In this document: piece after piece, positions 1,574-46,235 of the stretch | Layout: the number at the start of each line of letters is the position of its first letter | How positions within the stretch are numbered: position 1 is the stretch's first letter | From: Neptunicoccus sediminis | GTDB taxonomy: Bacteria; Pseudomonadota; Alphaproteobacteria; Rhodobacterales; Rhodobacteraceae | Length of the DNA stretch: 64,000 nucleotides | Direction: 5' to 3' | Assembly: GCF_001719615.1 (NCBI RefSeq) | Contig: NZ_MDVX01000001.1 | Span: 310,001-374,000 of the forward strand | Translations under genes and position numbers: made by a program | Notes under the pieces: generated by a model | What the model saw: only the letters and a program-made list of their open reading frames with translations | What the model was told of the DNA's origin: nothing | The model's database searches: none

Positions 1574-2407
1574 TTATACTCCGTAAAGGGCATCGGCGTG
1601 AAAGGCGACATGGTCTTCCATAAAGGTTGAGACAAAGAAATAGCTGTGGTCATAGCCTTCCTGCATCCGGAATGTGCCGGGCTGACGGCGAGCAGCCATC
1701 GCTTCGGACAGGGCTTCGGGTTTGAGAAGGTCCAGAAAGTTGTCGGCGCTGCCCTGATCTATCAAAATGTGCGACGGATGGCCGGTTTCGCGCATCAACA
1801 GGGTTGCGTCATGGGCGGCCCAAGCGGCCTCATCATCGCCCAGATAGGCGGAAAGCTGTTTGCGCCCCCAATCCGAAGCGGTCGGGTTGGTGATCGGGGC
1901 AAAGGCGGAAACCGATGTGTACTGATCCGGCCGCGCCATTGCCAGCGTCAGCGCACCATGCCCGCCCATAGAATGTCCGGTGATGCCCTGTGCCTCTTCC
2001 AGCAAGGGAAATTCGTTGAACACCAGCGCGGGCAGTTCCTCTGTGATGTAGTCATACATTTTGTAATGGGGCGCCCAAGGGTCCTCAGTGGCGTTCACAT
2101 AGAACCCTGCGCCCTTGCCCAGGTCATAGGCATCATCGTCGGCCACATCTTCGCCGCGGGGCGAAGTATCGGGGAACACCACGGCTATTCCGTTTTCCGC
2201 CGCCCAACGCTGTGCGCCTGCTTTGGTCATGGCGTTTTCATGGGTGCAGGTCAGGCCGGACAGATACCACAGCACCGGAACCTCGTGCAGTTTGGCCTGT
2301 GGCGGCACGAACAGGCCGAACGTCATGTCACAGGCGCAGCTGTCCGAGTGGTGGGAATAGACCCCCTGTACCCCGTCGAAGCATTTGTTTTCCGATAGCA
2401 TTTCCAT
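1574..2407 (-). CDS. fghA: S-formylglutathione hydrolase
   Basis: This 277-residue esterase-D-family enzyme hydrolyses S-formylglutathione to formate and glutathione. It is the second step of glutathione-dependent formaldehyde oxidation, after AdhC (4944-6056). The nucleophile elbow GHSMGG puts Ser at about residue 146. A conserved Asp follows in the LIDQGSADNF segment, and the catalytic His is in YDHSYFF near the C-terminus. The ATG at 2407 was chosen because GGAG lies 7 bases upstream and the length then equals that of characterised homologues. A longer in-frame extension to 2461 has no such support. It leads a unit with sthA and the UPF0178 gene. Confidence 0.94.
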   Translation of the reverse strand: MEMLSENKCFDGVQGVYSHHSDSCACDMTFGLFVPPQAKLHEVPVLWYLSGLTCTHENAMTKAGAQRWAAENGIAVVFPDTSPRGEDVADDDAYDLGKGAGFYVNATEDPWAPHYKMYDYITEELPALVFNEFPLLEEAQGITGHSMGGHGALTLAMARPDQYTSVSAFAPITNPTASDWGRKQLSAYLGDDEAAWAAHDATLLMRETGHPSHILIDQGSADNFLDLLKPEALSEAMAARRQPGTFRMQEGYDHSYFFVSTFMEDHVAFHADALYGV

Positions 2408-42736: not shown

Positions 42737-43933
<1,197 letters not shown>

Positions 43934-44566
43934 TTAGACGTTTTTGGGGCAGTCCTCAGACCACAACATGTTGTGGATCGGTTTGAAGGAGCGCCGATGA
44001 TGTTGTGTCACGCCCAAGGTCTCCAAACCTGCGATATGGGCTTTTGTGCCGTAACCCGCATTTGTTTCCCATCCGTAGCCGGGAAACTGTTGCGAAAGCG
44101 CCACCATCATCCGGTCCCGCGTCACTTTTGCCACAATGGACGCTGCTGCAATCGACAGACAGCGCCCGTCCCCTTTCACCAGCGTTTCAGACGGGCAGGC
44201 CAGTCCCTGCGGCACCTTGTTGCCATCAATCAGCGCAAAGTCCGTCGGCTGCGCCAGCCCTTCAATCGCACGTCGCATGGCCAGCAAAGAGGCTTGCAGA
44301 ATGTTGATCCGGTCAATTTCTTCCACATCCACGTGAAACACAGAGACATCCGCCTGCGCCATGATCTGATCAAACAGGATCTCCCGCCGTTTCGCCGTCA
44401 GCTTTTTCGAATCGTTCAACCCTTCGGGAATATGCCGCGGGTCGAGCACAACCGCACAGGCGGTGACGGGGCCAGCCCAGGGCCCGCGCCCCACCTCGTC
44501 AACACCAGCGATGCGGTTCACGCCAAGACTGCGGCGACGTTCGGGTTCTATGGTTATATCAATCAT
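43934..44566 (-). CDS. rnhB: Ribonuclease HII
   Basis: The 210-residue enzyme removes RNA from RNA-DNA hybrids and misinserted ribonucleotides. The metal-binding acidic residues are in IAGVDEVGRGPWAGPV (Asp and Glu) and later Asp positions in FALIDGNKVP and KVTRDRMM. SIAAASIVAKVTRD and GYGTKAHI are typical. The frame is open to 44767, but the ATG at 44566 gives the normal length. Its ribosome-binding site is unusually close (GGGGG adjoining the ATG), so a slightly earlier start is possible. Confidence 0.93.
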   Translation of the reverse strand: MIDITIEPERRRSLGVNRIAGVDEVGRGPWAGPVTACAVVLDPRHIPEGLNDSKKLTAKRREILFDQIMAQADVSVFHVDVEEIDRINILQASLLAMRRAIEGLAQPTDFALIDGNKVPQGLACPSETLVKGDGRCLSIAAASIVAKVTRDRMMVALSQQFPGYGWETNAGYGTKAHIAGLETLGVTQHHRRSFKPIHNMLWSEDCPKNV

Positions 44567-44613
44567 CCCCCGTAGGTGCCGTTTACGGGGCATTTTGGCA
44601 AGCCGAAGAACGC

Positions 44614-44640
44614 AAAACAGCGCCCGAAACGGGGCGCTGT
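44614..44640 (-). terminator. Rho-independent terminator after the His-rich protein gene
   Basis: On the minus strand ACAGCGCCC (44640-44632) pairs with GGGCGCTGT (44625-44617) over nine bases around a six-base loop, followed by TTTTGCG. It separates the 44662-45054 gene from rnhB. Confidence 0.8.
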
Positions 44641-44661
44641 CTGCACGGAATTGGTCTTGGG

Positions 44662-45054
44662 TTAGCGGCGGTGATAGCCGTGTCTGCCCGCGGGACGGTA
44701 TTTGTTTACACAGGCTTGATTGTAGAACTTTACCCACCCGTTTTGCGTCCATTTCTTGCGCAGGCAATTCGCTGGTGGGGTAAAGTGGCGTTTCACCGGC
44801 CGCTGCGCGTGGTAATATGTCTTTCCGTGGTAGTGAGGCTGGTAATGGGGGCGCGGCTGTGGCGTGGGGCGCACATAGATTGGCTGGTTGTTCGACTTAT
44901 TCGCTTCATTGGCGATTACGCTGATCACACCCAGCGCGGTCAGCCCCAGCAACAGACGGTCGATATTGTCTTTTGCCAAGGCTGCGGGGGCCGTGATCGG
45001 CGCTGCAACAAGGGCAAGGGCGAGAATTCCTGTCAGGGTCATTTTATGGAACAT
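44662..45054 (-). CDS. Secreted His/Tyr/Pro-rich small protein, unknown function
   Basis: The 130-residue protein has a signal peptide (LTGILALALVAAPITAPAALA). A mature part contains VRPTPQPRPHYQPHYHGKTY and further HAQRPVKRHF, then two cysteines (NCLRKKW, QACVNKYRP) and a basic His-containing end. The HxH/HxxH clusters could bind metal. The short segment NIDRLLLGLTALGVISVIANE is a second hydrophobic stretch and may anchor it. GAGGAAA stands upstream of the ATG. Function unknown. Confidence 0.72.
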   Translation of the reverse strand: MFHKMTLTGILALALVAAPITAPAALAKDNIDRLLLGLTALGVISVIANEANKSNNQPIYVRPTPQPRPHYQPHYHGKTYYHAQRPVKRHFTPPANCLRKKWTQNGWVKFYNQACVNKYRPAGRHGYHRR

Positions 45055-45220
45055 GGCTTTTTCCTCTTAAGGGCTCGGGCAATGCGAAATGCATCGCAAC
45101 ATGGTCCAACCCTGCCAAACCCCGCGCTGTCAGACAAAAACACCGCCGTGTTATGGGATAACATCGCTAAAAACGGGCTTTGTTATTGTATTACCCGCGC
45201 GTTTTGCGCAGGAATTTGGC

Positions 45221-45538
45221 ATGAGACACGTATTACATATATGGATACTGGGTGCGCTGCTGGCCGGATTGGTCGTGGCGCATCCGGTGAGCGCACAGCA
45301 AAACGGGTGTTTCGCGGATTACAAAGCGAAACGATCGGTGTCGGGCAGTCTGGAATTGCACTATGGTGTGATTGAGCTGGGCGCCCGCGCCTGCCAGTCG
45401 CCACGGCGGGCCGAACAGACCGTCAGCCGCCGGATTGCACCGGACGGTTGGACCCTGCTGCGCATCGTTTCCACATTCGGCCGCGCTGGCCTGCAACAGA
45501 GACAGGACAATGCCGGACCTTACTTCCTTAGATACTGA
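45221..45538 (+). CDS. Small secreted protein, unknown function
   Basis: The 105-residue product has a strong signal peptide (HIWILGALLAGLVVAHPVSA, then QQNGC) and a mature part with two cysteines (GCFADYKAKRS and ARACQSPRRAEQ). Its start has AGGA 8 bases upstream. The last 29 bases overlap the start of the membrane winged-helix gene, so the pair is probably translated together and may act as ligand or cofactor with sensor, which is inference. I do not recognise a family. Confidence 0.65.
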   Translation: MRHVLHIWILGALLAGLVVAHPVSAQQNGCFADYKAKRSVSGSLELHYGVIELGARACQSPRRAEQTVSRRIAPDGWTLLRIVSTFGRAGLQQRQDNAGPYFLRY

Positions 45539-46235
45539 TGACGCACCGAAAAGCCTGCTGAACCGCTTGAAACCCCGCAACGTGGTGGTGTCCGGTTCGG
45601 TGCTGGTCCTGTTACTAATCCTCGTGACGGCGGTGGTGCTGTTCATGGCCTTGCCCGATGCCAATGCATTCAATGACCGTGTGGCGCAGATTTTTGCACA
45701 GAACGACGCGCTGACCACCGCAGAGCAGATCAAGCTGCTGGAGATCCTCGCCCAGTCCGGCACGGCGTTTGCCGATGTACTGCAAAGCTACAGGGTAATT
45801 ATTTTTATCCTGCTGTTACTGGCCTCGGCGCTGTTGCTCTCGGCGCTTTACTTTTTGTTCACCAATTACGGTTTGTCCCGCAGACTGGACGAGATCGAAC
45901 AGTTCGGCATTCATATCACCAGTCTGATCGTCAGTCGGGACGAGCGGGTCGTCTATATCAACAACATGGAGTTTGAGCTGACCGAGAGCATCTGCGAGAC
46001 CCTTTCGGTTCTCTGCGAGGCGCGTCTCGATGACGAGGTCATCACTGGCGCAGAGCTGGAGTCCATGATTTCCGGCAAGACGGCTGCCGATTGCGAAGAA
46101 GCCGCCGGTGCCACACGGATCAAACGGCTGCGCGACCAGCTTGGCAATCAGCTGGTTTCTCATCTTCTTGTCAAAAACATCAGTCGCAAAGGCTATACCC
46201 TGTCGATTGATCGGGATGTCATTCGTATGCTGTGA
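45510..46235 (+). CDS. Two-TM membrane protein with C-terminal OmpR-type winged helix
   Basis: The 241-residue protein has a short cytoplasmic N-terminus, TM1 (about 25-47), an acidic periplasmic loop (48-95), TM2 (96-118) and a cytoplasmic C-terminal domain. Residues 146-236 fit the Trans_reg_C winged helix: ELTESICETLSVLCEA (helix 1), TGAELESMI (helix 2), ATRIKRLRDQLGNQL (recognition helix) and LVKNISRKGYTLSI (wing). This is the ToxR idea with reversed domain order. The recognition helix has three basic residues. Targets are unknown. It overlaps the small secreted protein gene upstream. Confidence 0.7.
   Translation: MPDLTSLDTDDAPKSLLNRLKPRNVVVSGSVLVLLLILVTAVVLFMALPDANAFNDRVAQIFAQNDALTTAEQIKLLEILAQSGTAFADVLQSYRVIIFILLLLASALLLSALYFLFTNYGLSRRLDEIEQFGIHITSLIVSRDERVVYINNMEFELTESICETLSVLCEARLDDEVITGAELESMISGKTAADCEEAAGATRIKRLRDQLGNQLVSHLLVKNISRKGYTLSIDRDVIRML

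What the first reader, a model, noticed from the sequence alone, without database searches (positions are those of the whole stretch)
45510..46235. Membrane-anchored winged-helix protein with reversed ToxR order
Two TM helices frame a 48-residue periplasmic loop, and the OmpR-type winged helix is at the cytoplasmic C-terminus rather than the N-terminus as in ToxR/CadC. It could be a one-component sensor that acts at the membrane. The recognition helix ATRIKRLRDQLGNQL and the wing RKGYTLSI look intact.
Basis: partly seen in the sequence, partly recalled or inferred. Interest (0 to 1): 0.6.

Follow-up and report, generated by a model that had tools for sequence, protein, structure and literature searches.

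The report
Membrane-anchored regulator with a periplasmic partner
Most bacteria of the order Rhodobacterales carry an uncharacterised gene pair, a small secreted protein plus a membrane-anchored DNA-binding protein built in the reverse order to the cholera regulator ToxR, and comparative genomics predicts the DNA site it binds and a set of cell-envelope genes it controls, all of which can now be tested.

Summary
Window 45510-46235 encodes a 241-aa protein ("K"): two TM helices, a ~47-residue loop between them, and a C-terminal OmpR-type winged helix. K is single-copy in 348/395 Rhodobacterales genomes and absent from 284 other alphaproteobacterial genomes.

(1) A partner: K lies directly downstream of a small exported protein ("J", 45221-45538, two invariant Cys), usually with a 29-50 nt overlap. 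J occurs in 25/25 sampled K+ genomes and 0/25 K- genomes. (2) An operator: helically phased palindromic boxes (TGTTATYGRATAACA; 45149-45163 and 45181-45195) lie between J-K and a divergent exported protein "I". (3) A regulon: the box precedes DUF5333 inside the nuo operon in 27/32 K+ but 1/19 K- genomes (second, fresh genome set alone: 14/16 vs 1/11, p=8e-5). LolA (8/18 vs 0/12) is weaker; a YiaD lipoprotein (4/18 vs 0/12) is only suggestive.

Best reading: K and J form a phosphorelay-free membrane sensor-regulator of envelope genes. It works like ToxR/ToxS, but has reversed domain order, reversed gene order and a partner of unrelated predicted fold. DNA binding, topology, signal and J-K contact are inferred, not shown. 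New variant of a known kind.

The parts
45510..46235 (+). K: TM-anchored OmpR-type winged-helix protein, 241 aa (TM1 ~45579-45650, loop ~45651-45791, TM2 ~45792-45863, winged helix ~45912-46232)
46101..46151 (+). recognition helix of K (residues 198-214), the most conserved stretch of the family
45221..45538 (+). J: small exported protein (105 aa, predicted signal peptide, invariant Cys30 and Cys58), overlaps the start of K by 29 nt
45149..45163 (.). palindromic box B, TGTTATGGGATAACA, 22.3 bits
45181..45195 (.). palindromic box C, TGTTATTGTATTACC, 15.9 bits, 32 bp from box B
45128..45142 (.). possible degenerate third box about 21 bp upstream of box B (5.4 bits here, stronger in relatives)
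   Evidence: weak
44662..45054 (-). I: exported basic/His-rich Cys-containing protein, divergent from J; an ORF of the same type is found in the same place in nearly all loci read, so the boxes lie in a bidirectional promoter
43934..44767 (-). RNase HII (rnhB), conserved neighbour in most loci but not part of the system
42737..43897 (-). CcrM-type adenine methyltransferase, conserved neighbour in most loci but not part of the system

Best explanation
K is a membrane-anchored transcription regulator with N- and C-termini in the cytoplasm, a short conserved helical hairpin in the periplasm and an OmpR-type winged helix at the C-terminus. It works with J, a small disulfide-containing periplasmic protein made from the same operon. 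Dimers of K bind helically phased palindromes (TGTTATYGRATAACA) in the I/J-K promoter region (autoregulation) and at promoters of exported envelope proteins: DUF5333 inside the nuo operon in most genomes, LolA in about half, and a YiaD-type lipoprotein in some. J probably reports the state of the periplasm to K's loop, and the signal passes through TM2 and the coiled stalk to the winged helix without any phosphorelay. Shown by sequence comparison: architecture, J-K linkage, the boxes, their helical phasing, and the box/K co-occurrence. Inferred: that K is the protein that binds the boxes, the direction of regulation, J-K contact and the signal.
For: Architecture and recognition helix. The loop is as conserved as the winged helix (0.80 vs 0.79) and more so than TM1 (0.56), as expected of a working periplasmic part. 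J in 25/25 K+ and 0/25 K- genomes; J directly upstream of K in nearly all loci read. Boxes upstream of J: paired or tripled in 62 of 66 promoters, with spacings only 21-22, 31-33, 42-44 and 53 bp. Boxes stay with J-K where ccrM-rnhB is not adjacent (L078, L079, L085). Box upstream of DUF5333: 13/16 K+ vs 0/8 K-, then 14/16 vs 1/11 in a second, fresh genome set with matrix and threshold fixed (p=7.7e-5); genus-collapsed 24/28 vs 0/6, p=1.6e-4. LolA 8/18 vs 0/12. In genome G191 an insertion splits J from K: three boxes precede J and a 21-bit box now precedes K. G133, which lost K and J, keeps only weak sub-threshold matches (6.6-6.9 bits, p=0.045 and 0.08) before DUF5333 and LolA.
Against: No binding or expression data. 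Another regulator that co-occurs with J-K could own the boxes. OmpR-family regulators often bind direct repeats rather than palindromes (e.g. CenR, PMC9275681). LolA and YiaD sites are absent from the window's own genome, and after removing the discovery genomes the LolA contrast is marginal (p=0.047) and YiaD is not significant (p=0.49). Five K+ genomes lack the DUF5333 box. J-K contact is inferred only from gene overlap and co-occurrence. Related genomes are not independent. The winged-helix model is of moderate confidence with a poorly modelled wing.
Confidence: 0.66

Rival explanations
1. K is a true one-component regulator that senses through its own loop or membrane state; J is just a target gene or a chaperone in the same operon, not a signalling partner.
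For: K has a conserved loop of its own. J varies more than K (48% mean column identity against 68%) and is C-terminally truncated in some genomes (L084, L085, L088).
Against: J and K are gained and lost together without exception in 50 genomes and usually overlap in reading frame; J is retained even when an insertion separates the two.
Confidence: 0.2
2. Another transcription factor owns the palindromic boxes and J-K is one of its targets; K does something else at the membrane.
For: Palindromes are less usual for OmpR-type winged helices; nothing here shows K touching DNA.
Against: Boxes vanish from DUF5333 promoters in genomes that lost K, including within genus g1 and genus g51, so the other factor would have to be lost together with J-K each time. 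The recognition helix of K is the most conserved part of the family. The CenR site (TGA-N8-TGA, PMC9275681) does not match the box.
Confidence: 0.17
3. The C-terminal winged helix no longer binds DNA and serves as a protein-protein domain; the gene is a structural membrane protein.
For: Low Pfam score in this protein and a low-confidence wing in the model.
Against: The DNA-contacting helix is more conserved than any other part (0.94), which is unlikely for a decayed domain; the box co-occurrence is then unexplained.
Confidence: 0.05

Closest known systems
ToxR/ToxS, TcpP/TcpH and VtrA/VtrC co-component systems (PMC9214523)
   Same: Membrane-anchored OmpR-type winged helix plus a periplasmic partner from a two-gene, often overlapping cassette; phosphorelay-free signalling
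   Different: Known members have the HTH at the N-terminus, one TM helix, a large C-terminal periplasmic domain and a downstream lipocalin-like partner. Here the HTH is C-terminal, there are two TM helices with a 47-residue loop, the partner is upstream, and its predicted beta-beta-alpha-beta-alpha fold has no confident PDB match
CadC
   Same: Membrane-anchored OmpR-type winged-helix one-component regulator
   Different: CadC is N-terminal HTH, one TM, large periplasmic sensor with no partner gene (PMC9214523)
OmpR/PhoB-family response regulators, e.g. CenR of Rhodobacter sphaeroides (PMC9275681)
   Same: C-terminal winged helix of the same fold; an envelope regulon in the same bacterial order
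   Different: K has TM helices in place of a receiver domain; CenR binds a TGA-N8-TGA direct repeat and is found outside Rhodobacterales
Transmembrane transcription regulators as surveyed in PMC10269533
   Same: K fits the general definition (DNA-binding domain plus TM helices in one chain)
   Different: The passages read from that survey do not mention this layout; whether its supplement lists the family was not checked

Membership tests
OmpR/PhoB-type winged helix (Trans_reg_C, PF00486) | sequence match to the family profile | tested here: met
   43/43 homologues at E<=0.1, best 1.9e-6; the window protein itself is below the gathering cut-off (16 vs 26.2 bits)
OmpR/PhoB-type winged helix (Trans_reg_C, PF00486) | N-terminal beta-sheet, three helices, C-terminal hairpin | tested here: inconclusive
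   Beta strands 139-156 and three helices modelled, Foldseek prob 1.00 to OmpR-family domains but E>=0.018; hairpin region low-confidence
OmpR/PhoB-type winged helix (Trans_reg_C, PF00486) | DNA binding | not testable with these tools
   Indirect only: conserved recognition helix and box co-occurrence
ToxR/VtrA co-component superfamily | N-terminal HTH, one TM helix, C-terminal periplasmic domain | tested here: not met
   Order is TM-loop-TM-HTH; definition from PMC9214523
ToxR/VtrA co-component superfamily | downstream lipocalin-like periplasmic partner | tested here: not met
   The partner J is upstream; its model (pLDDT about 97 over the mature part) is beta-beta-alpha-beta-alpha, with no confident PDB match
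ToxR/VtrA co-component superfamily | two-gene cassette, often with overlapping reading frames | tested here: met
   29-62 nt overlap in most loci; exceptions L013, L050, L084 and the split locus L083; co-occurrence 25/25 vs 0/25
Two-component response regulator | receiver domain with phospho-acceptor Asp | tested here: not met
   No receiver domain in the Pfam scan; TM helices occupy the N-terminal half
Transmembrane transcription regulator (TTR) | DNA-binding domain and TM helix in one chain with the DNA-binding part in the cytoplasm | tested here: inconclusive
   TM helices and domain predicted; topology by the positive-inside rule only

The most novel reading that the evidence does not exclude
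A near-universal, order-specific envelope-homeostasis system of Rhodobacterales (proteins I, J and K) in which a periplasmic disulfide protein controls a membrane-bound winged-helix regulator of reversed order that directly drives outer-membrane lipoprotein carriage (LolA), lipoproteins and an exported protein embedded in the complex I operon: a phosphorelay-free counterpart of Cpx/Rcs/ChvGI.
Probability: 0.45. Interest if true: 0.78.

Novelty: new variant of a known kind. Interest (0 to 1): 0.63.

Why it matters
It would be an order-wide regulator of abundant marine and photosynthetic bacteria that is still called 'hypothetical protein' in the two annotated records seen here. It comes with a predicted partner, operator and targets, so simple experiments can test it. 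It shows that an OmpR-type winged helix can be tethered from its N-terminal side, and it gives function leads to three exported families (I, J, DUF5333); no paper in the searched library names DUF5333.

Tried and rejected
CcrM/CtrA/GcrA link: GANTC and CtrA-like sites upstream of J are not consistently present, and the boxes persist where ccrM-rnhB is not adjacent, so the methyltransferase is a neighbour rather than part of the system. CenR as owner of the boxes: its motif differs. Homologues outside the order: none in 284 other alphaproteobacterial genomes with the profile. Downstream DUF2125, PmbA and inositol phosphatase genes: conserved only in close relatives. A caspase-like exported gene near a box in G003 and G027: the box lies inside the upstream coding sequence in both, not pursued. 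Single sites near a cytochrome c gene and meaB in G035: not recurrent. GC content as cause of the K+/K- contrast: K- genomes span 40-69% GC. J by Pfam, NCBIfam, PDB sequence and fold: nothing convincing.

Full report
WHAT IS THERE. The window (contig C31 of a genome whose close relatives are Amylibacter and other Rhodobacteraceae) holds a 241-aa ORF at 45510-46235 on the + strand, called K here. It has two hydrophobic segments (about 24-47 and 95-118), a 47-residue acidic loop, positively charged flanks on both cytoplasmic sides, and a C-terminal domain of about 107 residues. Pfam Trans_reg_C matches weakly in this sequence (E=0.013, below the gathering cut-off), but all 43 aligned homologues match at E<=0.1, the best at 1.9e-6; the PDB profile search returns RstA and ToxR DNA-binding domains. 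The AF2 model (pLDDT 68, pTM 0.40) has the two TM helices, a long stalk after TM2, three strands and three helices, and Foldseek puts OmpR-family DNA-binding domains first (prob 1.00, E>=0.018). The wing is poorly modelled, so the fold rests on sequence and model together. The recognition helix is the most conserved part (0.94), and the loop is as conserved as the winged helix.

DISTRIBUTION. K is single-copy in 348 of 395 Rhodobacterales genomes (127 of 140 genera) and absent from 284 other alphaproteobacterial genomes searched with the profile. Absence in 26 genomes scored negative, many of one genus (g35), was confirmed with the profile.

THE PARTNER. In nearly all loci read, a small exported protein (J; window 45221-45538) lies directly upstream; its stop codon usually falls 26-62 nt inside K (29 nt in the window), with exceptions in L013, L050, L084 and the split locus L083. 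J has two invariant Cys and invariant Trp77. Its AF2 model is confident (about 97 over the mature part), beta-beta-alpha-beta-alpha, without a confident PDB match, and no Pfam or NCBIfam family covers it. J is present in 25 of 25 K+ genomes and 0 of 25 K- genomes. A divergent exported protein of one type (I; window 44662-45054) begins on the other side of the shared promoter region in nearly all loci. Beyond I lie rnhB and ccrM in most loci; where they are not adjacent (L078, L079, L085) J, K and the boxes remain.

THE BOXES. Upstream of J lie palindromic 15-mers, TGTTATYGRATAACA-like. In the window they are 45149-45163 (22.3 bits) and 45181-45195 (15.9 bits). In 62 of 66 promoters there are two or more; all 67 spacings are 21-22, 31-33, 42-44 or 53 bp, multiples of about 10.6. 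Four independent spacings would all fall so with probability about 0.003; because promoters share ancestry, this counts spacing classes rather than genomes. Such phasing is what cooperative binding to one face of DNA would select. The boxes are conserved even where K is only about 40% identical (L039, L040).

TEST OF OWNERSHIP. A search for the perfect palindrome found, besides J-K, a recurrent site upstream of DUF5333, an exported protein inside the nuo operon between nuoF and nuoG. A matrix was built from J-K promoters only. Upstream of DUF5333 a site of 12 bits or more occurs in 13/16 K+ and 0/8 K- genomes. With matrix and threshold fixed, 30 further genomes gave 14/16 against 1/11 (p=7.7e-5). 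Pooled: 27/32 against 1/19; collapsed to genera 24/28 against 0/6 (p=1.6e-4). Contrasts hold within genera: K- members of g1 lack the box, and the K- member of g51 (G133) has only weak sub-threshold matches (6.6 and 6.9 bits, p=0.045 and 0.08) before DUF5333 and LolA while three of four K+ members tested have full DUF5333 boxes. K- genomes span 40-69% GC, so base composition does not explain it. Mononucleotide shuffles suggest a chance rate of about 0.7% per promoter (18 hits in 851 kb).

OTHER TARGETS. A stricter pattern gave 43 sites in 17 K+ genomes against 2 for the reversed control, and 6 against 0 in 8 K- genomes. Recurrent genes were LolA (8/18 K+ against 0/12 K-, p=0.01, or p=0.047 without the three discovery genomes) and a YiaD-type OmpA lipoprotein (4/18 against 0/12, not significant). 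Neither carries a box in the window's own genome. The recurrent candidate targets (I, J, DUF5333, LolA, YiaD) all encode exported proteins, hence the envelope reading, which is an inference.

A NATURAL EXPERIMENT. In G191 (L083) an insertion of about 3.7 kb carrying a response regulator and a histidine kinase separates J from K. Three boxes precede J (19.6, 22.3 and 24.7 bits) and a 21.2-bit box now lies close upstream of K. Each half of the pair thus keeps or regains a box.

MECHANISM. Shown by comparison: architecture, linkage of J and K, boxes, phasing, co-occurrence. Inferred: K dimers bind the boxes; J, probably disulfide-bonded in the periplasm, is the input; the loop and TM2 stalk carry the signal; output is direct control of envelope genes with autoregulation. 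Activation or repression cannot be told.

COMPARISON. [quoted passage not shown] K-J fails two of their defining features: domain order, and a lipocalin-like partner encoded downstream. It therefore works like, but is not a member of, that family. CenR (PMC9275681) regulates the envelope in the same order but binds TGA-N8-TGA. The passages read from the survey of transmembrane regulators (PMC10269533) do not mention this layout; its supplement was not read. Searches for DUF5333 and for Rhodobacter with ccrM and rnhB returned no papers, which shows only that the held library is silent.

LIMITS. Many genomes are related; the K- set is rich in one genus. No experiment was run.

Noticed in passing
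L083 (G191), about 3.7 kb between J and K: A segment with a 468-aa ORF, a response regulator and a histidine kinase is inserted between J and K, and K has a box of its own just upstream.
   Followed up: partly
L271 (NZ_CP033223.1, plasmid pW43D of Parasedimentitalea marina): The whole ccrM-rnhB-I-J-K block, with both boxes, sits on a plasmid; I, J and K are all annotated as hypothetical proteins.
   Followed up: partly
L090 (G000:C59:213000-219500): DUF5333, an exported protein of unknown function, is embedded between nuoF and nuoG with its own box-bearing upstream region.
   Followed up: yes
L084, L085, L088: J lacks its C-terminal helix in these genomes although K is intact, so that part may be dispensable.
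   Followed up: no
window 44662-45054: Protein I (signal peptide, hydrophobic glycine-rich stretch, basic/His-rich linker, Cys-containing C-terminus) is of one type across the order at this locus, yet has no Pfam family.
   Followed up: partly
window 2386-2400: A lone box-like match (TGTTTTCCGATAGCA, 15.3 bits); shuffled windows reach similar scores, so it may be chance.
   Followed up: no
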